The position numbers and the translations under genes were made by a program. The notes under the pieces were generated by a model. That model was given only the letters and a program-made list of their open reading frames with translations. It did no database searches and was not told where the DNA came from. This document shows positions 24,871 to 40,990 of a stretch of 64,000 bases of DNA, in pieces (the stretch's first letter is position 1; every line of letters begins with the position of its first letter). The stretch is from contig JAMPFF010000011.1 in NCBI GenBank assembly GCA_023664605.1, positions 16,219 to 80,218 on the forward strand, read 5' to 3'. This DNA is from Clostridium sp. Lineage in GTDB: Bacteria > Bacillota > Clostridia > Lachnospirales > Lachnospiraceae.

Positions 24871-24907
24871 CACTATAACCTCGCTTTCTTCCTGTCTGCG
24901 GCTTATG

Positions 24908-24956
24908 CAAAAGAGCCATTGTTCCGGTAGACGTTATCTACTTTTGCAACAGCTCT
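24908..24956 (-). terminator. Terminator downstream of glgP
   Basis: On the minus strand AGAGC-TGTT-GTAGA pairs with TCTAC-AACA-GCTCT with internal loops, followed by TTTT. Confidence 0.5.
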
Positions 24957-24987
24957 TTCCAAATAGCATATGCTATACAGCCTCTTT

Positions 24988-27465
24988 TTATTTACCTATC
25001 TTTTTCGGTATCACTACCTTATCCAGTTTCCAGATATCATCCACATATTCCTGAATGGTTCTGTCAGAAGTGAACTTACCGGAACACGCCACGTTTAAAA
25101 TCGCGCTTCTTGCCCATCTCTTCTCGTCCTTATACGCTTCTTCCACCTTGCGCTGCGCCGCCGCGTAAGACTTGAAGTCTTTCAGGATAAAATAAGTATC
25201 AGCCTTGGATGTACTCTGCGTATTTAACAAAGAGTTATACAATGTCCTGAACAGGTCAGGGTCATTCGGTGAATAGGTTCCGTTAATCAACTGCATCAGC
25301 ACTTTTCTGATATCAGGGTCGTTATTGAAAATATCCATCGGGTCATATCCGCCGTAATTTTCATATTTGATAACCTCGTCGGAACTTAAACCGAAAATAA
25401 AGGCATTTTCTTCCCCGACTTCCTCCACAATTTCCACATTGGCGCCGTCCATCGTGCCAATCGTCAGCGCGCCGTTTAACATAAACTTCATGTTACCGGT
25501 TCCGGAAGCCTCCTTACTTGCCGTTGAAATCTGCTCCGATACATCGGACGCCGCAAAAATCATCTCTGCATTGGATACACGGTAGTTTTCGATAAATACC
25601 ACTTTAATCTTACCATTTATGCTCTCGTCATTATTAATAACATCTGCAACCGAATTAATCAGCTTAATCGTCAGCTTCGCATTCATATAACCTGCCGCCG
25701 CCTTTGCGCCGAAGATAAAGGTTCTCGGATAAAATTCCATATCCGGATGTTCCTTTAATTCATTATACAGATACATAACGTGCAGAATGTTCATTAACTG
25801 GCGTTTATATTCATGCAGTCTCTTAACCTGTACGTCGAAGATAGAACGCGGGTCTACTTCAATACCGTTATGCTCCAAGATATATTTGGCAAGACGCACC
25901 TTGTTCTGATACTTGATATTCATAAACTCCTGCTGCGCCTTTTCATCATCGGCATATACTTTTAATTTATTAATCTTGGGCAAATCCGTAATCCAGTCGC
26001 TTCCCACATGCGCCGTTACCCAGTCGGCAAGAAGCGGATTGCCGTGCAGAAGGAAACGTCTCTGCGTAATGCCGTTTGTCTTATTATTGAACTTCTCCGG
26101 CATCATCTCATAGAAATCTTTCAATTCCTGGTTCTTCAAAATCTCCGTATGTAATCTTGCAACGCCGTTTACGGAATAACCTGCGGCAATGGCAAGATGC
26201 GCCATCTTCACCTGACCGTCATAGATAATCGCCATCTTACTGATTTTTTCCTGATTGCCCGGATACATCTGCTCGATTCTGGCAATAAATCTGCGGTTAA
26301 TTTCTTCCACAATTTGATATACACGGGGGAGCAGTCTGGAGAACAGTTCAATCGGCCATTTTTCCAATGCTTCCGCCATAATCGTGTGGTTCGTGTATGC
26401 ACAGGTCTTGGTCGTAACCTCCCATGCCTCATCCCATGTCAAATAATAGTCATCCATCAAAATACGCATCAATTCCGCAACGGCTACCGTCGGATGGGTG
26501 TCGTTTAACTGGAACGTTACCTTTTCATGGAATTTCTTAATATTTTTATGCTTGCGCATATATTTTTCCACCGCTTCCTGTACGGATGCGGAAATAAAGA
26601 AATACTGCTGTTTTAAGCGAAGCTCTTTGCCCGCGTAGTGATTGTCGTTTGGATAAAGCACCTCGACGATATTTCTGGCGAGGTTCTCCTGCTCCACCGC
26701 CTTGTGGTAATCGCCTTTATCAAAGGAATCAAGCTGGAAGCATTCCACCGGTTCCGCGTCCCAGATACGCAGCGTATTGACAATGCCGTTGCCGTATCCG
26801 ACAATCGGGATATCATAAGGAATCGCCCTTACGGACTGGTAGCCCTCCTGCTTGAAGTTGTTTCTGCCGTTCTCATCCACATAGACATTCACATAGCCGC
26901 CGAATTTTACCTCTTTGGCATATTCCGGTCTGCGCAGTTCAAACGGATTGCCGTCTTTTAACCAGTTATCCGGCACTTCCACCTGATAACCGTCCTTAAT
27001 TTCCTGTTTAAACATACCATAGCGGTAACGGATGCCGCAGCCATACGCCGCATATCCCAATGTCGCAAGGGAATCCAGAAAACACGCCGCCAGCCTTCCC
27101 AGACCGCCGTTACCAAGCGCCGCATCCGGCTCCTGATCCTCTACCACATTGAGGTCAATGCCAAGTTCCTCCAACGCTTTCTTAAACACATCATATGCCT
27201 GTAAGTTAATCAGATTGTTGCCAAGCGCGCGTCCCATCAAAAACTCCATGGACAGATAATATACCATCTTAGGGTCCTGTTTTTCATATTCCTGCTGGCT
27301 CGTCAACCACTGGTCCACGATAGCATCCTTAATCGCATAGGACACCGCCTGAAAAATCTGCTGGTCGGTCGCCTCCTCCAATGTTTTACGATACAGCGTC
27401 TTAACATTATAAAGTACGCTTCGCTTAAACAACTCCGTATCAAATGTCGCTGCTTTCTTCTGCAT
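24988..27465 (-). CDS. glgP: Glycogen/starch phosphorylase
   Basis: 825 residues, the usual size of GT35 phosphorylases. Recognisable are AALGNGGLGRLAACFLDS near 130, DTHPTVAVAELMR near 330 and the PLP-binding EASGTGNMKFMLNGALTIGT near 665. It releases glucose-1-phosphate from glycogen in the cytosol. With glgC and glgD elsewhere in the window it covers synthesis and breakdown of storage glycogen. It has its own promoter. Confidence 0.96.
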   Translation of the reverse strand: MQKKAATFDTELFKRSVLYNVKTLYRKTLEEATDQQIFQAVSYAIKDAIVDQWLTSQQEYEKQDPKMVYYLSMEFLMGRALGNNLINLQAYDVFKKALEELGIDLNVVEDQEPDAALGNGGLGRLAACFLDSLATLGYAAYGCGIRYRYGMFKQEIKDGYQVEVPDNWLKDGNPFELRRPEYAKEVKFGGYVNVYVDENGRNNFKQEGYQSVRAIPYDIPIVGYGNGIVNTLRIWDAEPVECFQLDSFDKGDYHKAVEQENLARNIVEVLYPNDNHYAGKELRLKQQYFFISASVQEAVEKYMRKHKNIKKFHEKVTFQLNDTHPTVAVAELMRILMDDYYLTWDEAWEVTTKTCAYTNHTIMAEALEKWPIELFSRLLPRVYQIVEEINRRFIARIEQMYPGNQEKISKMAIIYDGQVKMAHLAIAAGYSVNGVARLHTEILKNQELKDFYEMMPEKFNNKTNGITQRRFLLHGNPLLADWVTAHVGSDWITDLPKINKLKVYADDEKAQQEFMNIKYQNKVRLAKYILEHNGIEVDPRSIFDVQVKRLHEYKRQLMNILHVMYLYNELKEHPDMEFYPRTFIFGAKAAAGYMNAKLTIKLINSVADVINNDESINGKIKVVFIENYRVSNAEMIFAASDVSEQISTASKEASGTGNMKFMLNGALTIGTMDGANVEIVEEVGEENAFIFGLSSDEVIKYENYGGYDPMDIFNNDPDIRKVLMQLINGTYSPNDPDLFRTLYNSLLNTQSTSKADTYFILKDFKSYAAAQRKVEEAYKDEKRWARSAILNVACSGKFTSDRTIQEYVDDIWKLDKVVIPKKIGK

Positions 27466-30500: not shown

Positions 30501-30758
30501 ATCCCAGCCCGCTTTTCGCGGCACCATATATCCTTTCATGGTACGGTAACGCGGAATCATATCTTTGATAACGCGGGTTAAAACATGTCCAATATGCGGC
30601 TTTCCGTTTGCCGTCGGCGGACCGTCATAAAACGTGTATGTCTCACCTTCTTTTCGATTTTCCATACTCTTTTCAAAAATATTGTTTTCTTTCCAGAACT
30701 GACAGACTTCTTTTTCTCTGTCCACAAAATTTAAGCTGGCATCGACTTTCTGATACAT
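27585..30758 (-). CDS. ileS: Isoleucyl-tRNA synthetase, eukaryote-like (type 2) form
   Basis: 1057 residues. HIGH is at 55-58 in NGKPHIGHVLTRVIKDMIPRY pieces, the editing domain contains TTTPWTLPSN, KMSKS lies near 600, and Cys pairs (CPRC, CGEC, CPKC) look zinc-binding. The PHIGHVLTR...KAGWDTHGLPVE form and length belong to the IleRS2 class, which is generally less sensitive to mupirocin than IleRS1. It starts 48 nt after a glycan-locus gene and has no room for a T-box leader, so its expression must come from upstream promoters. Confidence 0.95.
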   Translation of the reverse strand: MYQKVDASLNFVDREKEVCQFWKENNIFEKSMENRKEGETYTFYDGPPTANGKPHIGHVLTRVIKDMIPRYRTMKGYMVPRKAGWDTHGLPVELEVEKLLGLDGKEQIEEYGLDPFISKCKESVWKYKGMWEDFSGTVGFWADMNDPYVTYHDDFIESEWWALKQIWDKGLLYKGFKIVPYCPRCGTPLSSHEVAQGYKAVKERSAVVRFKVMGEDAYFLAWTTTPWTLPSNVALCVNPDEQYVKVKAADGYTYYMAQALLDSVLGKLKAEGDSDNADSAPYTILETYKGTDLEYKEYEPLFACAGEAAAKQHKKGHYVTCDNYVTMTDGTGIVHIAPAFGEDDAQVGRKYDLPFVQFVDGKGEMTQETAYAGLFVKKADPEILKDLDKEGKLFDAPKFEHDYPFCWRCDTPLIYYARESWFIKMTAVRNDLVRNNKTVNWIPESIGEGRFGNWLENIQDWGISRNRYWGTPLNVWECGECGHMESIGSREELAKMSGNPNAQTVELHRPYIDEITITCPKCGKTMKRVPEVIDCWFDSGAMPFAQHHYPFENKELFEQQFPAQFISEAVDQTRGWFYSLMAESTLLFNKAPFENVIVLGHVQDENGQKMSKSKGNAVDPFEALETYGADAIRWYFYINSAPWLPNRFHGKAVQEGQRKFLGTLWNTYAFFVLYANIDNFDATQYTLDYDNLPVMDKWLLSKLNTAVKEVDNNLNEYKIPEAARVLDNFVDEMSNWYVRRSRERFWAKGMEQDKINAYMTLYTALVTISKCAAPMIPFMTEEIYLNLVKSIDKDAPESIHLCDFPVEDEKMIDTKLEEDMEEVLKIVVMGRAARNAANIKNRQPIGMMFVKAENALGEFYQEIVKDELNVKEIQFTDDVRAFTSYSFKPQLRTVGPKYGKQLGGIQKTLASLDSNQAMDTLNADGALTFDIDGVKVVLEKDDLLIEMAQKDGYVSEADNVMTVVLDTNLTKELIEEGFVYEVISKIQTMRKDADFEVMDNITVSICDNDKIMDIVRKNEEMIAAKVLAKSIVEGKALPVSKEWNVNGEKVVIAIEKV

Positions 30759-30806
30759 AATTATTCTCCTCCCTAATAAAGCAAAGTTTTAAATATTCTG
30801 CTGCTT

Positions 30807-32552
30807 TTACTGCTCCATCACGGTTCCGTTTGTCGCAAGTTTCATCTGTTTATATTCTTCTTTCATTCTAAAACCATCCTCTATTGTTGAACCACGAAGT
30901 TCCATATATTGTAACATATCAACACATGGCGTACCCGGAAAAGCATAATATCCTGTATAGTTATCCTCATCCGGTCCATATACTGTAAGACCTTCCCATT
31001 CTATTTCATAACACTCCCGATATACATAATAGGAAGAACGTTTCAAAGGAAGTTTCTCTATATAACGTCCTGTCTGGCAAATCAGACATATCATTAGTGC
31101 CGCCAGCATAAAAGGCATTGCTGTCTGATAACATTTTACGGCTGTCTCTTTTTGACTCTCCAGCATATGAATGATTACCATACAGGGAATCAAAAATAAA
31201 ACAATACTGCCGTACCTGTCAAGCGGCGCTAACAGCAGCCAGTATGCAAACTGTGCAAGGACTGTAATATTAAGTACAATATCATAGGGTTGCTGTTTTT
31301 TTCTAATTTTTATAATATTTATCATGACAAAAACAGGAAGCAGCACAAGATGGGAAGCAAGCATTATTTTAAACCATAATTCTTTTGCCTGCCACCACTC
31401 GGGAAACCACTCCATAATAGACATATCCCATACTTCACGATATCTGAATATATCATACACGCCTTTTCCATATGCCGCAATTTCCATTTTATCAAATTCT
31501 ACCGAATACGGCAGCATTTTCCAGTCTACGTCAAAAAATCCCGATACTGTCATCGGATACACGAAATAGCCCGATATGATAAAATTTCTGATACAAAACG
31601 GCAGTAAAATAAACAATCCGGCCGTAATCAAAACACCTATCGTTTTGCCCCGTTTTGCTTTTATCAGTTCCACTGCGGGCTTTAGCGTCAAAATCATAAT
31701 CATGGCAACGGACAATTTTACGGTCAGGGCATACAATGCCAGTAGGCAAAGCAGTCCGTATGCTTCCGACGGGGTTTCTTTTTCCTCTGCGTAATCGCAC
31801 CACTTACTTAATAAATACAGTAAAAACAACAAAACAAAGTGGTCCGTTCCCGGAGAAGCCATCGTTCCCATATTTATCATATCATATAAAATAATTACCG
31901 GCATAAAGCAGTTCGATGCTTTATATTTTCCTTTTTGACACGGAAATTTGATAAGCGCATACACAGTGACAAGCATACATAAATATGCGTTCATCACGTG
32001 CATGGACTGGTCTATTAAAAACGCCCAGCTATATAAAGCCTGCAGCGGCATAAATGCGCTATTATAGGCAAAGCGATTATGCAGATTGCCAAGCCCCTTT
32101 ACAACACCGTATTCTTCCAGCCACCTAATAGCCTGGGCATGATATAAATCAGTATCCGCATGATACGCTCTCTGGCACGCAATAAACCAAAATAACATAA
32201 ATACCGCCACGATAAGCGTTGCATGGATAACCGTCGATTTGGACAATTTTGCCTTTTTTATGCACAAGGCTTTCTGATACAGCATTTTTAGCAAATCAGC
32301 AATTTGCTTTCTGCATAAAACCGCGGTTAAAATACAAAGGAGAAGTAAAAACGCATTCGCCAGTCCGGCTACTTTATAAAAAAGGCTGAAAATCTCGGCA
32401 TAAGCCGTCACAAAAGCGATTCCCGTAAAAAGGCATACATCCGCTTCCTTACACGCATATCCGGTCGTCTTTTTTAACAAGGTCAAAACGCCAATCCCCA
32501 TGATTGCGGCGGTCAACGTTATATAAAACCAGTTTATGAATGTTAAAATCAT
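30807..32552 (-). CDS. LIC_10190-like polytopic membrane protein (GT-C-type glycosyltransferase candidate)
   Basis: 581 residues with about 12 hydrophobic segments. The loop after the third or fourth segment holds YHADTDLYHAQAIRWLEEYG and GLGNLHNRFAYNSAF (in separate motifs), the signature I associate with the LIC_10190 family found in surface-polysaccharide loci. An acidic HADTD near the first large loop suits a polyprenyl-sugar-dependent GT-C enzyme. It is the last glycan-locus gene before ileS, with its own possible promoter and a 4-codon minicistron overlapping its start. Confidence 0.75.
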   Translation of the reverse strand: MILTFINWFYITLTAAIMGIGVLTLLKKTTGYACKEADVCLFTGIAFVTAYAEIFSLFYKVAGLANAFLLLLCILTAVLCRKQIADLLKMLYQKALCIKKAKLSKSTVIHATLIVAVFMLFWFIACQRAYHADTDLYHAQAIRWLEEYGVVKGLGNLHNRFAYNSAFMPLQALYSWAFLIDQSMHVMNAYLCMLVTVYALIKFPCQKGKYKASNCFMPVIILYDMINMGTMASPGTDHFVLLFLLYLLSKWCDYAEEKETPSEAYGLLCLLALYALTVKLSVAMIMILTLKPAVELIKAKRGKTIGVLITAGLFILLPFCIRNFIISGYFVYPMTVSGFFDVDWKMLPYSVEFDKMEIAAYGKGVYDIFRYREVWDMSIMEWFPEWWQAKELWFKIMLASHLVLLPVFVMINIIKIRKKQQPYDIVLNITVLAQFAYWLLLAPLDRYGSIVLFLIPCMVIIHMLESQKETAVKCYQTAMPFMLAALMICLICQTGRYIEKLPLKRSSYYVYRECYEIEWEGLTVYGPDEDNYTGYYAFPGTPCVDMLQYMELRGSTIEDGFRMKEEYKQMKLATNGTVMEQ

Positions 32553-32580
32553 TTATTTTCCATTTATCCTCCGATAATAT

Positions 32581-32608
32581 ACTATACCAAAAATATGAAA
32601 TAGCGCAA
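32581..32608 (-). promoter_or_regulatory. Possible internal promoter before the LIC_10190-like gene and ileS
   Basis: Minus strand TTGCGC (32603-32608), 16 nt, TATAGT (32581-32586). It would let ileS be expressed without the full glycan transcript. Confidence 0.4.
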
Positions 32609-32620
32609 GTGGGGTTTTAG

Positions 32621-33037
32621 TTATGCGGAGTTTTGGTCCTGCGTGTCTTTAAAGACAAACAGTTTACCAAGGATGTAGTTTAGCGCCGTCGTTATAACAA
32701 TCATCACCATTTTTCCTAGTTTGTCATCTATGAAAAAAACATCCACAAGTACAATCAAACCGACAAAATCAACAACACCAGTAAATCCTCTGCCCAGAAT
32801 ATAACGAATAATTTCTGTCAACTGCTCTTTAAAATTCGTCTTGGTGCGGAAAACAAATTTTTTATTCGTACAATAAGCAAATACTTTCGTTATGATAAGA
32901 CTGAGCAAATTAGCAATCTGATATGCCAAAAATTGTTTTAAGAAAAGATAACTGAAATAATTGAGCAACACAGTCATAACACCCCAGAATATATAGCGGC
33001 ATGCTTCTTTTTTTTCAAATATATTGTCAATTTTCAA
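32621..33037 (-). CDS. GtrA-family membrane protein
   Basis: 138 residues with four membrane segments, typical of GtrA proteins that are thought to move polyprenyl-phosphate sugars across the membrane. It starts at TTG (33035-33037) with AGGGAAG 9 nt upstream, and overlaps the preceding gene by 11 nt. The GT2 protein in the same operon is the natural GtrB/DPM-like partner. Flippase activity is inferred from family context. Confidence 0.88.
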   Translation of the reverse strand: MKIDNIFEKKEACRYIFWGVMTVLLNYFSYLFLKQFLAYQIANLLSLIITKVFAYCTNKKFVFRTKTNFKEQLTEIIRYILGRGFTGVVDFVGLIVLVDVFFIDDKLGKMVMIVITTALNYILGKLFVFKDTQDQNSA

Positions 33038-34295
33038 TCTGTGTCACTTCCCTACCCTTTATTTTTCCACTGATTTTTACCAACTGTTGAAACGGTAATA
33101 TCCGAATCGCACATCTGCCAACAGAAGTTTTAAAAAAGGCTAATATAAAATATAACAAAACTCCTTTTATTTGTATCTTTTGGCTGACCTTATCAAATTC
33201 TAAGCCATACTCGGGAAAAGACTTCATTTGTTTTGCCCGAACCGCAATCTGCTTCTTCTTATAAGTAACTACCTTATTCTGCGTCTTAATAATAGCCTTT
33301 TCATCCGCAGATTCGGCATATATAATACCCTGTCCTTTTACAGCATCAAACAACTGTTTTCCCGTATCTGTTCTTACGATAACTCTTGAAAACCCCTGCC
33401 CTTTCTCCCATGCATCCCCGACAGAAATATCTGCAAATTCGCCGCTATAATCAAAACATTTCCAACATCGCTTTGGGGAAAATAAAAGATTCAAAAACGT
33501 ATACCCATGTTTATTAACAAAAAATTCCCCACCATTTTTTTCTTTTATATAAAATCCTGTGTCATTTCCCCTTTTATACCGGTAGCTTATATATTCTATA
33601 TTTTCTTTCCGGATTTTGCTCTTAGCAATTAAATAATCCGTTGCCTCATACTCCATGTTAAAACCACAAAATGGCGCAAGCAAAACAACAACCTGTTCCT
33701 TTAACCAGACGTTTTTATCCATTGCCTTTCTCATTCCGTGAATCTGACATGGCAGTCCCACGTATGCTACCTTTTTACCGCTCTTTTTAATATCGCGAAT
33801 CACCTGATTAACCGGCAACATAACATATTTCGACTGTGCCGCCTCTATAATCTGCTCTCTGTTTTTTGCAATAAAAGATTCAAATTCACATGGAGAATTC
33901 TTTTTTCTTCTAACACCGACAACGCCCTCAACCACATTTTTCTCTAATAAAAATAAAAGCAACTGCGTAATAACGCCGCCGGAAGAGCCAATATGGCGGA
34001 TTTTCTCTTCTTTTGCATAAGCATTCCAAATACTTTGATACGCACCAAATAATTTCCCTGTATCATAGCTTTTTTCAAACAATTTTTCAGACCATTCGGG
34101 AAAAGAAAACTCTTTTCCCGGACAAACATCTCTGCACATACCGCACTGAATACAACGATTATCCGTATTGGTAATCTTTTCCTTTGTATATGAAAGAGTA
34201 TTTACCGGACATATGCCGATACAGGTTCCACAGCGTGTACACAAATCACACTCTATGACTTCCGTTTTTAATGCATCAAATCCCGTTCCTTTCAT
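33027..34295 (-). CDS. Ferredoxin / coenzyme F420 hydrogenase-dehydrogenase beta-subunit protein
   Basis: 422 residues. The N-terminus carries two [4Fe-4S] motifs: CDLCTRCGTCIGICP near 16-30 and CIQCGMCRDVCPG near 48-60. The remainder is the FrhB/FdhB fold with conserved Cys (YVGLPCQIHGMR, APFCGFN, KRCWKCFDYSGEFADISVGDAW). Such proteins recur in polysaccharide loci, often beside pyruvyl transferases, where their redox substrate is unknown. The start overlaps the upstream stop (ATGA). Coenzyme F420 use is not implied, since Clostridia of this type are not known to make it. Confidence 0.88.
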   Translation of the reverse strand: MKGTGFDALKTEVIECDLCTRCGTCIGICPVNTLSYTKEKITNTDNRCIQCGMCRDVCPGKEFSFPEWSEKLFEKSYDTGKLFGAYQSIWNAYAKEEKIRHIGSSGGVITQLLLFLLEKNVVEGVVGVRRKKNSPCEFESFIAKNREQIIEAAQSKYVMLPVNQVIRDIKKSGKKVAYVGLPCQIHGMRKAMDKNVWLKEQVVVLLAPFCGFNMEYEATDYLIAKSKIRKENIEYISYRYKRGNDTGFYIKEKNGGEFFVNKHGYTFLNLLFSPKRCWKCFDYSGEFADISVGDAWEKGQGFSRVIVRTDTGKQLFDAVKGQGIIYAESADEKAIIKTQNKVVTYKKKQIAVRAKQMKSFPEYGLEFDKVSQKIQIKGVLLYFILAFFKTSVGRCAIRILPFQQLVKISGKIKGREVTQIEN

Positions 34296-35896
34296 GGCAT
34301 CAGTACCTTTTCTTCCATCTGCTCACTGTCAAAATGAAATACTCTCTGTATTCTGATATTGTTTATATCCGGGTACTGTTTCCTGCTGTGACAGCCGATA
34401 TCCGACAGTGAAAAAAACTTTCCCGAAGCTACATGCCGCAATGAAAAACTATCTGCACATTCCAGGCAAATCTTGTCCTGACTGGAAATAACATCATCTA
34501 TCACAATTTTATCTTTTTGTAAAAATATCATTCTTTCAAACCGGATATTTGTTTTTTTATCCACTAAAATAATCAGTCTTTTTAACATACCGATAATTCT
34601 ATTTCCTACAATCGCCGATACGACGCGCAGACCAAAAAGCATAAACGGTGTGGCAACTTTTTGTTTTACCATATTCATATGTCCGCTTATTTTGATTCTG
34701 CATGCCTCATACTCTATTTGGTAATCCGCACTCTGCCAATTAGTTGCCGCCACTTTCCCCTCATCCAGTTTCACACGATAACCATAATCGGCAAAGCATT
34801 CCTTATCACCTTTAAAAATCCTGCACACACCGCCTTTCGATGCACCGACTATCATATAGATATTGCCTCTGGTACAGGAAAGTAATCCTGCCTCCGCAAA
34901 ATAATGCTCCTGCTCATAAGCAAACGGCAGTTTCACATCGGGCTGTGTCTTATTTTTTCCATCCTTTGCTTTTTCAATCGCCCGCAGAAAAGAATGCAGC
35001 AGATAATGGGAAAAATAACGGTCATCCACTGCATCAAGGAAATAAAAATCTTTTTCGCAGTTACGATATAAAAACTGCAGCATCGCCGCTGCATCCTGAT
35101 TGCCCAGATTGCTCATAACCTGAAGCCCATTCGGTAAAAAATAAATCGTATTTCGGGAAGCATACTCTCCTCCCACTGAAACATCCGGATGTACAAAATA
35201 TTTCAAAAATCCCATCATTTTGTTTAATGGCTCCAGAACTTTCTCATCATGGCTCATCCAGTAATACTCCGCCAGCATATCTAAGGACACGCTTAAGTAT
35301 CCGATATCCGCCCCGCCATATTCAGGAAACCAGCCTTCTTTGGACTGTAATGCTAAGATTCTTTCCAGTTTTTTATTTAATCCATCTAAAATCCAATCTT
35401 TTTGTAAAACAGTATAGGCCGAATATAATGCCGCAATAGAGGCCAGTTCCTGATTATACGCCTTCTTTTCTATGTGTGCAGACAAATATCCGGCCGTCTT
35501 TTCAAATGCCTGCAAGATGTTTTCATCCTGCATATCCAGACGTTTATATACTTCACACATTGCATAAAGAGAAAACGCCGTCGGTGGAAAACCATGCTCG
35601 TGCGGATAATATTCGTTAAAGCTTCCATCCTTTAACTGAATAGACTTCCAATAATAAACTGTACCTATCGCCCATTCCCGCACAACGTCTTTCTGATAAA
35701 AACAGTTTCCCGGAAAATCCACCATATATAGTAATGCCAATGTCAGCCCCGTCTGCTGTAAGATTGCGGAAGAAAAATCCCGAATTTTTAAATGCCAATG
35801 ATTCCTATCGCAGTCACCGTAATTCTTAGAATGTTTATCTCTGTCCACTTGCGTCAATACTCTAGGCGCCATTTTTAATACATATTCCGAATACAT
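34292..35896 (-). CDS. Alpha/alpha-toroid protein with C-terminal beta domain (heparinase-like architecture)
   Basis: 534 residues without signal peptide or membrane span. Residues about 30-290 are repeated helix pairs with aromatic/Gly motifs (DGSFNEYYPHEHGFPPTAFS, GWFPEYGGADIGYLSV), the pattern of (alpha/alpha)6 toroids; residues about 320-525 are beta-rich, as in polysaccharide lyases and heparinase II/III-like proteins. No lyase active site could be assigned. It overlaps the ferredoxin gene by 4 nt and the GT2 gene by 1 nt, so all three are coupled. It may be a cytosolic glycan epimerase or lyase, or an inactive relative. Confidence 0.6.
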   Translation of the reverse strand: MYSEYVLKMAPRVLTQVDRDKHSKNYGDCDRNHWHLKIRDFSSAILQQTGLTLALLYMVDFPGNCFYQKDVVREWAIGTVYYWKSIQLKDGSFNEYYPHEHGFPPTAFSLYAMCEVYKRLDMQDENILQAFEKTAGYLSAHIEKKAYNQELASIAALYSAYTVLQKDWILDGLNKKLERILALQSKEGWFPEYGGADIGYLSVSLDMLAEYYWMSHDEKVLEPLNKMMGFLKYFVHPDVSVGGEYASRNTIYFLPNGLQVMSNLGNQDAAAMLQFLYRNCEKDFYFLDAVDDRYFSHYLLHSFLRAIEKAKDGKNKTQPDVKLPFAYEQEHYFAEAGLLSCTRGNIYMIVGASKGGVCRIFKGDKECFADYGYRVKLDEGKVAATNWQSADYQIEYEACRIKISGHMNMVKQKVATPFMLFGLRVVSAIVGNRIIGMLKRLIILVDKKTNIRFERMIFLQKDKIVIDDVISSQDKICLECADSFSLRHVASGKFFSLSDIGCHSRKQYPDINNIRIQRVFHFDSEQMEEKVLMP

Positions 35897-36849
35897 TACT
35901 TTTTCTCCTGATTGTCATACTCCATTTTTTTAAGATGATATTTAATTTCTTCAATCATTTTGCGGTTTGCCGCCATAACATCAGCATGTAAACCCACAAT
36001 ATAAGTTTGTACGCCTATCAATAATAAAATAGCTGCCAAAATTAATGATTGAACATGTCCGGCATGAGGGTCATTTGCTAAATAAATCAGATAACGGATT
36101 CCCAGCAGCATTCCCATCGTAAATGGAATCGTGCCGATAATACTGAAAAATTTAAGCGGCTTATACATCATAAAAGCTCTTATAATTGTCAAAGCAGACT
36201 TTTTAATATAAGCGCGCATACTATGAAAAAGCCTGGACGGCCGCAATTCCGCATTCGTCCGTATGGGAACGGAAGTAATCGCAATTTTCTCCTGTCCTGC
36301 CTGTATGATAGTCTCTAACGTATATGTATACTCATTAATGACATGCAGACGCATAGCCGCATCCCGGGAAATAGCGCGAAAACCACTGGGCGCATCCGGA
36401 ATATCCGTATCAGACGCCACCCTGACAAACCAGGAGCCTAAATGCTGCAGCTTCTTTTTCAAAAAGGAAAAATGGGAAATCGAATCAATCGGACGCGCTC
36501 CAATGACAATATCGGCTTTTTCCTCAAGAATCGGAGTCACCAGCTTTTCAATATCGTCACCGCAGTACTGATTGTCCGCATCGGTATTGACAATAATATC
36601 CCCCCCCTGCTTTAATGCCTCATCCAATCCTGCCATAAACCCGCGGGCAAGCCCTTTATTTCTTTTAAAATTAACAATATAATGAACACCCCAGTTCTTT
36701 GCAACTTCCACCGTTTTGTCCATACTGCCGTCGTTAATAATCAAATATTCTATTTCGTCAATACCATCAATGTGTTTTGGAAGTGCATTTAAAGCAATCT
36801 CCAATGTTTCCTCTTCGTTATAGCATGGAATCTGTATTATCAGTTTCAT
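35896..36849 (-). CDS. GT2 glycosyltransferase, DPM1/GtrB-like
   Basis: 317 residues from the ATG at 36849, two bases beyond the upstream stop. The GT-A domain includes IPCYNEEETL, NDGSMDKT and NTDADNQY (the DxD region). Two C-terminal membrane helices lie near 230-255 and 275-300. Enzymes of this form transfer a sugar from a nucleotide donor to polyprenyl phosphate at the inner face. The product would supply the GT-C enzymes after transfer by GtrA. Confidence 0.9.
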   Translation of the reverse strand: MKLIIQIPCYNEEETLEIALNALPKHIDGIDEIEYLIINDGSMDKTVEVAKNWGVHYIVNFKRNKGLARGFMAGLDEALKQGGDIIVNTDADNQYCGDDIEKLVTPILEEKADIVIGARPIDSISHFSFLKKKLQHLGSWFVRVASDTDIPDAPSGFRAISRDAAMRLHVINEYTYTLETIIQAGQEKIAITSVPIRTNAELRPSRLFHSMRAYIKKSALTIIRAFMMYKPLKFFSIIGTIPFTMGMLLGIRYLIYLANDPHAGHVQSLILAAILLLIGVQTYIVGLHADVMAANRKMIEEIKYHLKKMEYDNQEKK

Positions 36850-36850
36850 A

Positions 36851-38596
36851 TTATTGCGCCTTTCTTTGTATGATGACATAGTCCTTTACCTGCAGACACA
36901 TAGCATATCCTTCATCGGCATAATCCGCATAATCCTGTTCGGACATTACGATATACGGAGAACCCGTTATCGCATTCATTTGACTTTTATCGATACCGAT
37001 AACCGCCTTATCCACCACTCTCGTCTGCAAATCATAGGCTGGTTTTCCTTCCGCAGTCGTATAAATAATGTCTTCTTTTTTTGTATTTTCATTCAAAAAA
37101 TCAAAAATCTGCGCATATTGCTGTATATAATCATTTTCTCCTCTTATCACGATACGCATACACGCCAGTGCGGTTGTAGAAAAAAAGAAGATAAGCAATA
37201 AACATATAATATAGCGGTTTATTTTCTTTGGCATCTTTGTCAGGGAAAATATCCAACAAAGTGTGCCTACACATATTGCAATTAACACACACTTTAAAAC
37301 GCTGAACTCTCCCAGCCAGTGAAAAACATAGATTCCCACTGCCGAAACCGTATTTAAATAAAAGTTTTCTATATCTTTTAAATTGTAATATACAATAAAT
37401 GATACTGTCAAATAAATTGCATAAACCGGCATTATATGGGCTGCATATGTTTTTTTCTCTCTTTTTTCATATAAGAAAAGCAAGGCCATCATAGTAAAAA
37501 ATCCCAATAAAACATCACTATATCTTCCATAAAATAAAGTGTCTATCCGAACCATACTTTCCGTAGGATTAACAGCATTTTCAATAAAAAACAGGCTCGT
37601 CATCGCTATTGTTCCGGCCAATGCGATAAGTGGAAATATATATAAACTAATATTTAACTTTTCCTTTAGCGCCCTTATTCCTTTATCAATACAAAAAACA
37701 ATCCCCAGCCCGGCCAATAAATAAGTTGCCGATAAAAGCTGCCATATCTGACCAATAGTATTAAGAAGAAAACTTTTTATCCCATCTGTTGTCAAAATTT
37801 CCCTAAATTTTCCCATCTGTCCGGAAAGCGTATTCGCCCCTCCTGAAGCAATGTTGCCCCCTGCATTTTGCAACACGGTATTATTTACCAGTAAATCATT
37901 AAAATACTGCTTTCCAATGGAGGAAAGCCCAAACAATAAAACTATTGCAATCACTACGGATAAAAAATGCCGTATTCTGATTTTTTTTGTCCATACCAGC
38001 AGAAGCATTGTCAATATCAATGCAGCAATAACAGCCAACATCCTGTTATGAACCATATAGGCATATCCGGCTGTCAAGCCAATTAAAATACCTTTTCCAA
38101 TGCCCGGCTTTTCTTCCAATAGAATCAACTCATATAAAAGCAGCCACAGCAAAAAAACAAGCAATGTCTCGCTCCATCCGATATAGGAATTGAAAATATA
38201 AGTGGAATAAGATGTTGCCGTAAATGCTATGGCTCCTATCGGCAATACTCCGGAAATCTCCGGCGCAGCTTTTTGTATCACTTTAAAAGCCAGCCAGAAA
38301 TTTATCAGGCTTAGCACAATATTGATAATTACCGCCATTCTATACATGACAAGCATATTTGTCGTAATCAAGAAAAGAGGCGCCAAAAGCAGGCTGTAAC
38401 CGAAAGCATACCACGGCATATTCTGCATAACTCCCGCCCATGTATGACCGGTCACGGCTGCGGCATGGCCCCAATATCCCAATTCATCCGTATAGACAAA
38501 CGGCCCCTTTACTTTTGTAATATAAAAAATTCTTACAAGAAATGTACCAAGGAAAAACATTCCTAATAATATTTTATCTTTTTGTTTTGCTGTCAT
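36851..38596 (-). CDS. Polytopic GT-C glycosyltransferase (PMT/ArnT-like)
   Basis: 581 residues with about 11-13 membrane segments. The first loop carries VYTDELGYW (a DE pair typical of GT-C catalytic loops) and a following GHTWAGVMQNMPWYAFGYSL-type region. A C-terminal extracytoplasmic tail of about 80 residues ends the protein. It probably transfers a lipid-linked sugar outside the membrane. It is the second such enzyme in the locus besides the 30807-32552 gene. Confidence 0.78.
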   Translation of the reverse strand: MTAKQKDKILLGMFFLGTFLVRIFYITKVKGPFVYTDELGYWGHAAAVTGHTWAGVMQNMPWYAFGYSLLLAPLFLITTNMLVMYRMAVIINIVLSLINFWLAFKVIQKAAPEISGVLPIGAIAFTATSYSTYIFNSYIGWSETLLVFLLWLLLYELILLEEKPGIGKGILIGLTAGYAYMVHNRMLAVIAALILTMLLLVWTKKIRIRHFLSVVIAIVLLFGLSSIGKQYFNDLLVNNTVLQNAGGNIASGGANTLSGQMGKFREILTTDGIKSFLLNTIGQIWQLLSATYLLAGLGIVFCIDKGIRALKEKLNISLYIFPLIALAGTIAMTSLFFIENAVNPTESMVRIDTLFYGRYSDVLLGFFTMMALLFLYEKREKKTYAAHIMPVYAIYLTVSFIVYYNLKDIENFYLNTVSAVGIYVFHWLGEFSVLKCVLIAICVGTLCWIFSLTKMPKKINRYIICLLLIFFFSTTALACMRIVIRGENDYIQQYAQIFDFLNENTKKEDIIYTTAEGKPAYDLQTRVVDKAVIGIDKSQMNAITGSPYIVMSEQDYADYADEGYAMCLQVKDYVIIQRKAQ

Positions 38597-38609
38597 AGTA
38601 TCATCCTCA

Positions 38610-39488
38610 TTATTGTTCTAACAGTCTCTCCCTAATACTCTCCCTGTTCTTTTCCAAATAGGAATCGCTCATATGAACACCATCCACCAGTTCGTCCTCA
38701 CTTACATAGATAATGCTGTCCATATAACGATTTAACAATTCCTCTTCGCCCTCAAAATACAGTCTATCCTGCATTTCTTCCAAAAAATATTCATAATTTT
38801 CCGGAATAGGGGGGGCTAATAAATGGAATCTAATATTCTTTTCGTCACAAACCGCTTTCATTTTTCCCAAATAAATGGCAGCCATATCCATTTCTTCCCC
38901 GCCGTCTGCCTTTCTTTTCATCTGTTGTATACGCCGGCGTCCGTTTTGATAGATATCCAGCAATTTCGGATATTTGGCAAGCATCCATTTCGGGAACTCC
39001 CTGCTCACAAAAAAACGTCCATAAACATTCTCCAGTTCCGCTTTTGTTTCCGGCTCTAAATATTGCAGAAACAACTCGTTATATAAAGGTGTCACAAAAT
39101 AACTGTATGTGTATATGAAATTAGGATTCCCCATAATGCTGTCCGGCCGCGCTATATAATACACATCTTCTATCTGAGGATTGTTTTCTAGAAACCGCTC
39201 CATCAATACGAAATTGCCGATGGTTGTAACCGCCTGATTGGTCGCAAGATAACATATATCATCGCTTTCCTCCTGATATTTCGGCTGAAAAATCTGTCTT
39301 GCCACACTGTCGCCCAAAACCAATCCCGTATAGCCGTCATTGACGCCCGCTTTATCCGCCGCGTCATAAACTTCAAACGCCACCTGTCTGGAATCTTTTG
39401 TCATTACATAATAGGCTATATTCAACAGCAGAAACAGAAAACACGCCCCGCATACAATTCCCGCCGTTCTTATCAAAAACTTTTTCAA
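38610..39488 (-). CDS. SGNH/DltD/AlgJ-like extracytoplasmic partner of the MBOAT protein
   Basis: 292 residues: one N-terminal membrane segment (about 7-27) and an outside domain with GDSVARQ (nucleophile Ser region near 60) and DGVHMS (DxxH near 275), the outer motifs of SGNH acyl-transfer/esterase proteins. It lies directly downstream of the MBOAT gene, the arrangement of PatA-PatB, AlgI-AlgJ/X and DltB-DltD pairs. It is predicted to move acetyl groups from the MBOAT protein to a glycan. Confidence 0.78.
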   Translation of the reverse strand: MKKFLIRTAGIVCGACFLFLLLNIAYYVMTKDSRQVAFEVYDAADKAGVNDGYTGLVLGDSVARQIFQPKYQEESDDICYLATNQAVTTIGNFVLMERFLENNPQIEDVYYIARPDSIMGNPNFIYTYSYFVTPLYNELFLQYLEPETKAELENVYGRFFVSREFPKWMLAKYPKLLDIYQNGRRRIQQMKRKADGGEEMDMAAIYLGKMKAVCDEKNIRFHLLAPPIPENYEYFLEEMQDRLYFEGEEELLNRYMDSIIYVSEDELVDGVHMSDSYLEKNRESIRERLLEQ

Positions 39489-39519
39489 CTTTATAACCTA
39501 CCCTTTCCTATAAAGCCTT

Positions 39520-40932
39520 TTAAAATTGGAAATAAATAAAAGTTCCACTGTCAATCCCATATTTACAATAATAGAGCATGGCTATCATAAATACAATACT
39601 CACCTGATATCCATGGAATATCTTTTCTTTCCCCTTTTCCTGCATCCGGTCGAAAAAGAATAATAACAGTAAAAATATGCCTAAAAGGCAAACCTGCATT
39701 TTCGGCAGCTCCAATAACTGAATGCCTCCCGTTATATAAGCGCCGAATGCACCGACGCCGTCCAAGCAATGCCTGAGGACAAAAACTGCGTCCGCTAGGG
39801 AATCCATCCTAAAAAAGACCCACATAATGCTCACTAACACAAACGTAACTATCTGCCTGCCAATTTTAGGAAAAGAATGTATATGCACATTTTTTCTAAA
39901 TACGCTTTCCACCACCTGCAGCGCTCCATTTAGTCCACCCCATATCAAAAATGTCCAGGCTGCCCCATGCCACAATCCGCTCAATAAATATACACACATC
40001 ACGTTTCTGTATATTTTCCAATCAGACACCCTGCTGCCGCCAAGCGGAATGTATATATACTCGCGAAACCATGAGGTAAGAGAAATATGCCACCTCTTCC
40101 AAAAATCCTTTAAGGAATCAGCAAAATAGGGCTGTCTGAAATTGGGCTGTATATGGATGCCGAATAATCCTGCCACACCGATGGCAATATCCGAATAGCC
40201 GGAAAAATCACAATAAATCTGGACAGAGTAAAATAAAATTGCCAAAAGAAGCGGAAATCCCCTGTAAGTTTCCATGTCTCCATAAATTCTGTCAATCACA
40301 GCCGCCAGACTGTCCGCAATAATCATTTTTTTCATATAGCCCAATAAAATGCGTTGTAACGCCATGCAGGCATTTTCATAGGAGAATACCTTTTCTTCCC
40401 TAAACTGCGCGGTCAGACGCTGGATTCTCTCAATCGGCCCCGCCAATAAAATCGGGAAAAAGATAACGCTCTCCAAAAAACAGCCAATGTGCTTCTCCGG
40501 TAAGATTTTTCCGGTATATACGTCTATCACATAAGCAAGCGTTTGAAAAATATAAAAAGAAATTCCAACCGGCAAAACCAGTTGAAAAACAGAAATCTGT
40601 GCGGAATTTCCAAACAAAGATAAAATATCATTGCATATTTCCCCAAAAAAGCCGAGATATTTAAATACAAATAAAACGGCCAGTTCAAAAACAATATCCG
40701 CAATCAATATTACTTTTCTGCAGCGCTCCTGCTTATTTTCCATACAGCGCGCAGCCATATAGGAGAATGCCGCCACAACCAAAATTAACGCAATATATTT
40801 TATATTCCACAAAGAATAATAAAAACAGCCTGCCGCCAACATGAGAACCCATCTGTAACGCGGCGGCATTTTCCAGTAGCATACCCATATTATTAAAAGA
40901 AAAACAATAAATTCAACAGACTGAAATAACAT
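39520..40932 (-). CDS. MBOAT-family O-acyltransferase (AlgI/PatA type)
   Basis: 470 residues from the ATG at 40932, preceded by AAGGAG. About 11 membrane segments; the conserved MBOAT His is in SGLWHGAAWTFLIWG near 325, after FWKRWHISLTSWFREYIYIPLGG pieces. It passes an acetyl (or other acyl) group across the membrane for O-acylation of an exported glycan. It is the first gene of the glycan locus behind a strong promoter. Confidence 0.93.
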   Translation of the reverse strand: MLFQSVEFIVFLLIIWVCYWKMPPRYRWVLMLAAGCFYYSLWNIKYIALILVVAAFSYMAARCMENKQERCRKVILIADIVFELAVLFVFKYLGFFGEICNDILSLFGNSAQISVFQLVLPVGISFYIFQTLAYVIDVYTGKILPEKHIGCFLESVIFFPILLAGPIERIQRLTAQFREEKVFSYENACMALQRILLGYMKKMIIADSLAAVIDRIYGDMETYRGFPLLLAILFYSVQIYCDFSGYSDIAIGVAGLFGIHIQPNFRQPYFADSLKDFWKRWHISLTSWFREYIYIPLGGSRVSDWKIYRNVMCVYLLSGLWHGAAWTFLIWGGLNGALQVVESVFRKNVHIHSFPKIGRQIVTFVLVSIMWVFFRMDSLADAVFVLRHCLDGVGAFGAYITGGIQLLELPKMQVCLLGIFLLLLFFFDRMQEKGKEKIFHGYQVSIVFMIAMLYYCKYGIDSGTFIYFQF

Positions 40933-40961: not shown

Positions 40962-40990
40962 ATTATATACTACTACCCGTATTTTGACAA
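40962..40990 (-). promoter_or_regulatory. Strong sigma-A promoter of the glycan locus
   Basis: Minus strand TTGTCA (40985-40990), 17 nt, TATAAT (40962-40967). Confidence 0.8.

What the first reader, a model, noticed from the sequence alone, without database searches (positions are those of the whole stretch)
30807..40932. Compact glycan locus combining O-acetylation, lipid-linked sugar transfer, a ferredoxin/F420-type oxidoreductase and a toroid protein
Eight genes under one consensus promoter: MBOAT + SGNH (acyl export), GT2 + GtrA (polyprenyl-sugar supply and flipping), two GT-C-like membrane enzymes, plus two unexplained soluble proteins translated in coupled overlap with the GT2. No initiating glycosyltransferase, Wzx or Wzy is present, so it may decorate an existing polymer such as a teichoic acid, glycolipid or protein. 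It is the best candidate here for an undescribed system.
Basis: partly seen in the sequence, partly recalled or inferred. Interest (0 to 1): 0.7.

Follow-up and report, generated by a model that had tools for sequence, protein, structure and literature searches.

The report
Lipid-linked sugar transfer with built-in remodelling
A gut bacterium carries a set of genes that probably loads a sugar onto a membrane lipid, flips it outside and attaches it to a surface glycan, and inside that set sits a recurring pair of enzymes, one of unnamed family and one flavin reductase, that probably remodel the sugar while it is still on the lipid.

Summary
The toroid protein (TOR, 34292-35896) has no Pfam or NCBIfam family. 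In 13 of 14 close TOR loci it sits beside a flavin reductase: 7 FrhB-type as here, 6 an unrelated nitroreductase-family protein. A family-2 glycosyltransferase is in the cluster in 11 of those 14 and in 7 of 7 distant loci (Chloroflexota, Theionarchaea, an alphaproteobacterial plasmid). In Christensenella hongkongensis FrhB and the GtrA flippase are one open frame. The sister locus L002 lacks FrhB and GtrA, and its TOR alone of 21 has lost a conserved tyrosine. Profile comparison, strong only with intermediate sequences, places TOR far out in the heparinase II/III toroid superfamily, whose known members act on uronic acids (recalled). I read the locus as a three-component lipid-linked glycosylation system (GT2, GtrA, candidate GT-C enzymes) plus a two-enzyme module that remodels the lipid-linked sugar, with MBOAT/SGNH acylation added. 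The chemistry (elimination plus ene-reduction, or C5-epimerisation, of a uronate) is inferred.

The parts
39520..40932 (-). MBOAT O-acyltransferase (ORF opens at TTG 40962; likely ATG start 40932)
   Evidence: Pfam MBOAT 7.5e-29; TIGR04091 DltB-like 5.3e-43 but below cut-off; WHG motif; 470-aa orthologue in L002
38610..39488 (-). SGNH/GDSL-type hydrolase with N-terminal membrane anchor, probable acyl-transfer partner of MBOAT
   Evidence: GDSV at 59 and DGVH at 269; one TM-like window at residue 4; no Pfam match
36851..38596 (-). GTC1, polytopic membrane protein, candidate GT-C transferase
   Evidence: 10 TM-like windows; recurs beside GT2-TOR in L002-L007 (split into two ORFs in L003), distant relative in L009 (alignment); no GT-C relative in the PDB
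35896..36879 (-). GT2 polyprenyl-phosphate sugar synthase (DPMS/AglJ/PgfS-like)
   Evidence: Pfam Glycos_transf_2 9.7e-26; AglJ model 3.6e-30, below cut-off; PDB dolichol-P-mannose synthase 4.6e-14, ArnC-type 2.4e-8; two C-terminal TM-like windows
34292..35896 (-). TOR, 534-aa protein of an unnamed family, probably a distant heparinase II/III-type toroid enzyme
   Evidence: No curated family; 21 TOR rows aligned with N148, E187, E192, D197 in 21 of 21 and Y200 in 20 of 21; profile link to Hepar_II_III proteins
33027..34295 (-). FRHB, ferredoxin-domain plus FrhB N/C-domain flavin/Fe-S reductase
   Evidence: Pfam FrhB_FdhB_C 4.8e-31, FrhB_FdhB_N 6.1e-21, Fer4; PDB 8riu, 8rja, Fsr over residues 4-347; 12 Cys invariant in the 6 FRHB proteins aligned, of 7 known here
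32621..33037 (-). GtrA flippase of polyprenyl-phosphate sugar
   Evidence: Pfam GtrA_DPMS_TM 2.3e-19; in one frame with FRHB in L009
30807..32552 (-). GTC2, LIC_10190-family polytopic membrane protein, second candidate GT-C enzyme
   Evidence: NF047510 287 bits, cut-off 100; 10 TM-like windows; clusters only with its L002 orthologue
40962..40990 (-). promoter-like site TTGTCA-17-TATAAT
   Evidence: 11 of 12 matches; 7 sites in the 601-bp stretch against 2.7 in shuffles

Best explanation
The locus makes and exports a modified monosaccharide on a polyprenyl-phosphate lipid. (1) GT2 transfers a sugar, probably a uronic acid, from UDP to polyprenyl phosphate on the inner membrane face. (2) TOR, a cytosolic toroid enzyme, acts on that lipid-linked sugar at C5/C4. 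(3) The FrhB-type iron-sulfur flavoprotein (a nitroreductase-family protein in other lineages) adds two electrons to the TOR product, most simply by reducing a 4,5-unsaturated uronate to a 4-deoxy sugar. (4) GtrA flips the finished lipid-sugar. (5) GTC1 and/or GTC2 transfer it to an existing surface glycan outside. (6) MBOAT and SGNH O-acylate the product. Shown: gene content, recurrence of the core, replacement of FrhB by an unrelated reductase family, an FrhB-GtrA single open frame, the conserved residues of TOR. Supported but not proven: distant relation of TOR to heparinase-type proteins. Inferred: each catalytic step, the uronate substrate, GT-C roles and the acceptor.
For: TOR beside a flavin reductase in 13 of 14 close loci: 7 FrhB, 6 nitroreductase (the nitroreductases of L013 and L062 by blastp clustering only). 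In L008 the reductase lies upstream of TOR, elsewhere downstream. A GT2-family gene is in the same cluster in 11 of 14 close loci and 7 of 7 distant ones (in L063 and L067 by blastp only). L009 carries FrhB (169-322) and GtrA (419-536) in one 543-aa frame (44% to FRHB, 50% to GtrA of the window). GtrA or PF03706 flippases and YfhO/PMT_2-type membrane proteins recur nearby. TOR plus 7 intermediates match heparinase II/III proteins of set A at 93.9%, E 1.5e-7, 189 columns; reversed and unrelated controls 0-0.5%. In the TOR/set A alignment N148, E192 and Y200 fall on residues kept in 9, 12 and 11 of 12 of those proteins. UDP-glucose dehydrogenase genes lie in the cluster in L009 and L010. L002 lacks FRHB and GtrA at the locus and is the one of 21 without Tyr at 200 (TAC in the window, TGC there). 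FrhB elsewhere overlaps a polysaccharide pyruvyl transferase gene, and structures near the L010 nitroreductase include an enone reductase.
Against: L012 and L013 have TOR and reductase with no GT2 in the fetched stretch; L013's genome has a 51% GT2 elsewhere, L012's none at E 1e-20. The 7 distant TOR loci show no FRHB or nitroreductase homologue by blastp. TOR alone against heparinase set A reaches only 32%, the close clade alone 4%, and set B gives 0.2-10% throughout. Direct HMM search with set A gives no TOR below E 0.02, and the TOR HMM gives no heparinase protein below 0.0056. The His kept in 11 of 12 heparinase proteins aligns with Phe361 of TOR, in a low-confidence stretch outside the 93.9% match. 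In the alignment of the distant TORs alone the Glu is one column off, Asn and Tyr still pair. UDP-glucose dehydrogenase is in 35 of 61 relatives, 34 of 37 of the genus, so genome-level presence says nothing. L002 TOR still shows dN/dS 0.10 against the window. One FrhB relative opened (Haloferax) has no glycan neighbours. Elimination of a C4 hydroxyl from a monosaccharide is harder than from a chain.
Confidence: 0.5

Rival explanations
1. TOR is a C5-epimerase that turns a lipid-linked (or short oligosaccharide) D-uronate into its L-epimer; the reductase handles another step, for example the reduction of an enolpyruvyl or keto group on the same sugar.
For: DSepi1, a uronate C5-epimerase, has a toroid plus beta-sandwich, and Agl32 epimerises a GlcA in an archaeal N-glycan (PMC13308652, abstract and passages). 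Asn and Tyr positions are kept.
Against: The tight TOR-reductase pairing (13 of 14) is not needed for a redox-neutral epimerase; the known epimerases require flanking sugars (PMC13308652 abstract); no match to the GlcE C-terminal family PF06662 among 14 TOR members.
Confidence: 0.25
2. TOR is a lyase or hydrolase that clears stalled or wrong lipid-sugars and recycles carrier lipid, and the reductase is a separate redox function.
For: Heparinase II/III relatives are mostly degradative (recalled); no signal peptide was seen in TOR by reading the sequence, so it would act inside.
Against: Overlapping genes, the FrhB-GtrA single frame and replaceable reductases point to a biosynthetic order.
Confidence: 0.12
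3. TOR and the reductase modify the polyprenyl chain, such as saturation of an isoprene unit, not the sugar.
For: Reductases pair with a polyprenyl-phosphate GT2 and GtrA; alpha-saturated carriers (dolichol) exist (recalled).
Against: TOR resembles sugar-active toroids; a squalene-cyclase match is insignificant (E 0.13, 1 of 10 proteins scanned); 2 of 21 loci place UDP-glucose dehydrogenase in the cluster.
Confidence: 0.06
4. Chance assembly: unrelated genes that happen to be neighbours in this genome.
For: TOR is rare and patchy: 4 of 61 relatives and 2 of 200 family members, own genome included in both.
Against: Same neighbours in separate lineages with changed order and a non-homologous replacement.
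Confidence: 0.02

Closest known systems
Three-component glycosylation systems (CsbB/GtcA/YfhO; GtrA/GtrB/Gtr)
   Same: GT2 that makes polyprenyl-P-sugar, small GtrA flippase, polytopic transferase candidates; YfhO itself occurs beside TOR in L011 and a YfhO-like protein in L009
   Different: Two extra soluble enzymes inside the operon, and MBOAT/SGNH acylation; acceptor unknown
Carrier-level epimerisation: DprE1/DprE2 and Klebsiella ORF13 (PMC11127046, passages seen)
   Same: Sugar is remodelled after transfer to the lipid and before transfer to the glycan; ORF13 lacks a signal sequence
   Different: Oxidase/reductase pair or SDR epimerase acting on pentofuranose; here a toroid enzyme and an FrhB or nitroreductase-family flavoprotein, sugar unknown
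Heparinase II/III-type lyases and DSepi1
   Same: Distant profile match over the toroid, aligned Asn, Glu and Tyr
   Different: Conserved His not kept (Phe361); no signal peptide seen; sits with biosynthetic genes; no match to the Pfam models
FrhB proteins of EPS/LPS loci (K00441; PMC10267222, passages seen)
   Same: FrhB-family gene in a glycan locus; that paper calls the link previously uncharacterized
   Different: Those opened here on plasmids sit by a pyruvyl transferase gene or in polysaccharide loci, one does not; in the window the partners are TOR and GtrA
Agl32 archaeal D-glucuronyl C5-epimerase
   Same: All-helical enzyme in a lipid-linked glycan pathway (paper passages)
   Different: Helical domain only, nearest to the AGE superfamily by fold in that paper; sequence relation to TOR not tested

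Membership tests
Three-component lipid-linked glycosylation system | GT2 polyprenyl-phosphate sugar synthase with C-terminal TM helices | tested here: met
   By sequence:
Three-component lipid-linked glycosylation system | GtrA/GtcA-type flippase | tested here: met
   (GtrA_DPMS_TM 2.3e-19)
Three-component lipid-linked glycosylation system | GT-C-fold transferase | tested here: inconclusive
   GTC1 and GTC2 polytopic, no fold evidence; YfhO/PMT_2 in other loci
Three-component lipid-linked glycosylation system | transfer of one sugar from polyprenyl-P to an external acceptor | not testable with these tools
   needs glycan analysis
Heparinase II/III superfamily (TOR) | homologous alpha/alpha toroid | tested here: inconclusive
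   Set A: 93.9% with intermediates, 32% without, 4% close clade alone; set B 0.2-10%; controls 0-0.5%
Heparinase II/III superfamily (TOR) | Asn and Tyr of the active site (roles recalled) | tested here: met
   N148 21/21 and Y200 20/21 align with N (9/12) and Y (11/12) of set A
Heparinase II/III superfamily (TOR) | conserved His of the GHxD motif | tested here: not met
   Phe361 in the aligned place, low-confidence stretch
GlcE-type C5-epimerase (PF06662) | Pfam C5-epim_C match | tested here: not met
   none listed among 14 TOR members at E up to 10
FrhB/FdhB family (FRHB) | FrhB N and C domains and Fe-S cysteines | tested here: met
FrhB/FdhB family (FRHB) | F420 as electron carrier | not testable with these tools
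   no assay; F420 biosynthesis genes not searched
MBOAT/SGNH O-acetyl export pair | MBOAT His motif with partnered GDS/DxxH hydrolase | tested here: met
   MBOAT plus AlgX-type protein also in L011

The most novel reading that the evidence does not exclude
TOR and the flavin reductase form a two-step deoxygenation module: TOR eliminates the C4 oxygen of a polyprenyl-phosphate-linked uronate to give a 4,5-unsaturated uronate, and the FrhB or nitroreductase-family flavoprotein reduces this 2-alkoxyacrylate to a 4-deoxyuronate that GtrA then flips. The same reductase chemistry would explain FrhB beside pyruvyl transferases, where an enolpyruvyl ether, also a 2-alkoxyacrylate, would be reduced to a lactyl ether (as MurB does in peptidoglycan synthesis, recalled). 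FrhB proteins of glycan loci would then be glycan ene-reductases.
Probability: 0.2. Interest if true: 0.85.

Novelty: new variant of a known kind. Interest (0 to 1): 0.62.

Why it matters
Sugars remodelled on the lipid carrier are known from a few cases (DprE1/E2 and ORF13 in PMC11127046; ArnD and NaxD recalled). Here an enzyme family with no Pfam or NCBIfam entry recurs as a pair with a flavin reductase in such a system. FrhB genes were reported to cluster with EPS/LPS genes in gut bacteria with no known role (PMC10267222, passages). The FrhB-GtrA single frame and the exchange of FrhB for a nitroreductase give that open question a concrete, testable answer: a reductase that works on a lipid-linked sugar.

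Tried and rejected
Sequence search of the PDB with TOR or its profile found nothing. Pfam hits of TOR to Exonuc_V_gamma, Filo_VP35, DUF6288 and ELF are sub-threshold and were dropped; Pec_lyase (7 of 14 members, best 0.023; 0.0013 in L065) was kept only as a weak toroid hint. UDP-glucose dehydrogenase as a marker of TOR genomes was tested and dropped: 35 of 61 relatives have it. In viral contigs 25 stretches matched a pattern and none encoded a TOR relative. No Rfam family at gathering score and no tRNA in the 64 kb. No paper describing this cluster was among those listed by searches (25 of 171 listed; 20 of 26; 43: 20 of 25); this covers only the held open-access library, and most of those papers were seen as titles and abstract starts.

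Rows set aside before counts: L001, L015-L019, L022-L036, L045 and L061 are shorter or repeat stretches of loci already counted. L020, L037-L044, L046-L060 and L068-L070 come from weak or partial TOR matches and were not counted as TOR; seven ORFs from L037-L043 served as the intermediates. Of the 30 heparinase loci fetched, twelve went into set A and eight into set B, picked by me by ORF length, three being in both; set B's weak scores are reported. The FRHB of L005 was left out of the alignment. The tree has long branches and low support at several inner forks.


Full report
WHAT IS THERE. The window lies in a 3.6-Mb, 78-contig genome. The nearest TOR loci are labelled Lachnospiraceae MAGs (L003-L007) and, for L002, Bacillus sp.. 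Eight co-directional genes run from 40962 (or 40932) down to 30807. Overlaps are 29 bp (GTC1/GT2), 1 bp (GT2/TOR), 4 bp (TOR/FRHB) and 11 bp (FRHB/GtrA, if its TTG start is right); GtrA and GTC2 are 68 bp apart, and ileS (named by reading) begins 48 bp after GTC2. A promoter-like site with 11 of 12 consensus matches lies at 40990-40962, among 7 such sites where shuffles give 2.7. Inside 30600-40900 the 41 promoter-like and 7 terminator-like sites are near the shuffled means of 35.1 and 8.1. The gene list is sound; the single transcript is not shown.

FAMILIES. MBOAT, GT2, GtrA and FrhB/Fer4 domains are firm. The GT2 resembles AglJ (3.6e-30, below the model's cut-off), PgfS and dolichol-phosphate mannose synthase 5mlz (4.6e-14), with two TM-like windows at its C-terminus. 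FRHB has relatives of known structure over residues 4-347 of 422 (8riu, 8rja, F420-dependent sulfite reductase), and twelve cysteines are invariant in the six FRHB proteins aligned, enough for three [4Fe-4S] clusters (inferred). SGNH shows GDSV and DxxH motifs, MBOAT a WHG motif. GTC1 and GTC2 are polytopic; only GTC2 has a named family, LIC_10190. TOR has no Pfam, NCBIfam or PDB relative by direct search.

DISTRIBUTION. TOR is rare. Counts include the own or centre genome: 4 of 61 relatives, 2 of 200 family members, 3 of 398 phylum members of which one is a weak partial hit, 1 of 151 of the Christensenella order, 13 of 298 of the Pelolinea class of which 5 are near full length, 17 of 115 of the Theionarchaea phylum of which 2 are near full length. 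One plasmid record of 72,556 has it. A scan of species genomes gave 13 loci, L002-L014.

NEIGHBOURHOOD. I counted 21 distinct TOR loci: 14 close (window, L002-L013, L062) and 7 distant (L014, L067, L063-L066, L021). Next to TOR is FRHB in the window, L003, L004, L005, L006, L007, L009 (blastp; L009 also Pfam), and a nitroreductase-family gene in L008, L010, L011, L012 (Pfam), L013 and L062 (blastp cluster). So 13 of 14 close loci have a flavin reductase beside TOR, from two Pfam families. In L008 the reductase is upstream of TOR, elsewhere downstream. GT2 is immediately upstream of TOR in 10 close loci (in L005 seen, since an antisense ORF hid it), and in L062 it lies downstream with three genes between; it is absent from the fetched stretch of L008, L012 and L013. 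The GT2 of L011 is only 24% identical to the window's. L008's genome has a 69% GT2 on another contig beside a UDP-sugar dehydrogenase-like gene, L013's a 51% GT2 elsewhere, L012's none at E 1e-20. GT2, TOR and a reductase in one cluster: 10 of 14. In the 7 distant loci a GT2-family gene is adjacent in 7 (on the opposite strand in L014 and L067), but those are 19-24% identical to the window's except L021 (49%), and no FRHB or nitroreductase homologue was seen by blastp. A methyltransferase is separate in L063 and fused to TOR in L064. Flippases are GtrA or PF03706. YfhO occurs in L011 and a YfhO-like protein in L009, PMT_2 in L062. MBOAT plus an AlgX-type partner recur in L011.

THREE TELLING CASES. 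First, in L009 (Christensenella hongkongensis HKU16) one 543-aa frame holds FrhB (169-322) and GtrA (419-536). It aligns at 44% with FRHB and 50% with GtrA of the window. A one-base sequencing error at an overlap could mimic a fusion; no second strain was at hand. Second, L002 is a sister locus (TOR 95%, GT2 98%); the same stretch is in genome G034 of the window's genus. It lacks FRHB and GtrA at the locus (the rest of that genome was not searched for them); the spacer before GTC2 is kept. Its TOR is the one of 21 without Tyr at position 200: TAC in the window, TGC there. Yet dN/dS between the two TORs is 0.10, so the gene is still constrained or the loss is recent; it is one observation in one MAG. 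Third, the TOR tree mixes FRHB and nitroreductase loci (L009 with FRHB groups with nitroreductase loci L012, L013, L062), which suggests exchange, but the forks there have 82-93 bootstrap support.

FOLD OF TOR. I took 12 and 8 proteins (three shared) from the PF07940 loci as sets A and B. TOR (21 rows) against set A: 32%, E 4.7e-4; the 7 distant TORs alone 51.5%; the 14 close alone 4%. Seven intermediate proteins from the Pelolinea class match TOR at 98.9% and set A at 72%; TOR plus intermediates against set A reaches 93.9%, E 1.5e-7 over 189 toroid columns. Set B gives 0.2-10% throughout. Reversed and unrelated profiles give 0-0.5%. Direct HMM searches are weaker: set A HMM against 21 TORs, best E 0.02; TOR HMM against the heparinase ORFs, best 0.0056; the two best intermediates match TOR at about 1e-20 and set A at 3e-4 and 1e-3 (small database). 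The 32% alignment puts N148 on an Asn kept in 9 of 12, E192 on a Glu kept in 12 of 12 and Y200 on a Tyr kept in 11 of 12 of set A; in the alignment of the distant TORs Asn and Tyr pair likewise and Glu is one column off. The His kept in 11 of 12 falls on Phe361 of TOR, in a stretch outside the 93.9% match. DSepi1 is described as toroid plus beta-sandwich with catalytic His and Tyr (PMC13308652, passages). I conclude, with moderate confidence, that TOR is a distant toroid relative with a changed active site. The most hydrophobic 19-residue window falls at the same conserved stretch (about residue 420 of the window's TOR) in 5 of 6 TORs tested, at 1.24-1.55, below a TM threshold; in L014 it is elsewhere. 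This hints at membrane contact and no more.

SUBSTRATE. UDP-glucose dehydrogenase overlaps the end of the cluster in L009 and L010, and toroid relatives act on uronates (recalled, and PMC13308652). But 35 of 61 relatives, 34 of 37 of the genus, have that dehydrogenase, TOR or not, so genome-level presence is no evidence. The uronate is an inference.

REDUCTASE. FrhB relatives on plasmids (102 records matched, 4 opened): in Sinorhizobium medicae the gene overlaps a polysaccharide pyruvyl transferase gene, in Pontibrevibacter and Alloyangia it lies in polysaccharide loci, in Haloferax it follows a ferredoxin-nitrite reductase gene without glycan neighbours. The one nitroreductase hit opened, of 26 records, had no glycan neighbours. 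A study of 123 gut genomes found LPS/EPS functions enriched near FrhB (K00441) and called the link previously uncharacterized (PMC10267222, passages). In 79 Klebsiella capsule loci there are two nitroreductase genes and one FrhB gene, and four types carry pyruvyl transferase genes without pyruvylation (PMC4616057, passages); which types carry the reductases I could not see. The structures nearest the L010 nitroreductase include an enone reductase (4qlx) and albonoursin synthase (8uc3) among 24 listed. An enolpyruvyl ether and a 4,5-unsaturated uronate are both 2-alkoxyacrylates, so one reductase chemistry could serve both settings. This is a proposal, not a result.

MECHANISM AND RANK. System level (lipid-linked sugar, remodelled before flipping, transferred outside, O-acylated): supported by gene context. 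Chemistry: open between elimination plus reduction, epimerisation, and others. Compared with known systems it is a three-component glycosylation system with a new two-enzyme insert, hence a new variant of a known kind; precedent for enzymes acting on the carrier-linked sugar is in PMC11127046 (passages). PMC7389260, PMC8035078 and PMC5836110 were seen in search listings only.

Noticed in passing
L064:7876-10242 (-): TOR fused to a methyltransferase domain (residues 613-748); L063 and L062 have a separate methyltransferase in the cluster, a further tailoring step in other lineages.
   Followed up: partly
L002:10001-11602, codon 200: The only TOR of 21 without the conserved tyrosine (Cys) lies in the one close locus that lacks FRHB and GtrA.
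   Followed up: yes
L003:7977-9046: GTC1 is split into two ORFs, described only; may be a sequencing error or decay.
   Followed up: no
L151:3893-6383 (Sinorhizobium medicae): Polysaccharide pyruvyl transferase and FrhB genes overlap by 14 bp, a pair that may make a reduced pyruvyl (lactyl) substituent.
   Followed up: partly
L014:9965-12545 and L067:9161-11726 (Theionarchaea): TOR and a GT2 on opposite strands with overlapping ends, next to a FemAB-like gene; function unclear.
   Followed up: no
G000:C11:221846-222295 (L136): The same genome carries a Hepar_II_III_C protein (642-aa frame) besides TOR.
   Followed up: no
L112:8923-11878 (G459): A second copy of the GT2 (70%) beside a GTC1-like gene, with no TOR homologue in the blastp, near a phage integrase gene: a transfer cassette that may be mobile.
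   Followed up: partly
window 23599-27465 and 41864-62628: Ten flank genes were scanned: a GTPase (HflX-like, recalled), carbohydrate phosphorylase, GNAT/SCP2 acetyltransferase, oligopeptide transporter parts, D-Ala-D-Ala ligase, two GlgC-like nucleotidyltransferases. Ordinary cell functions.
   Followed up: partly
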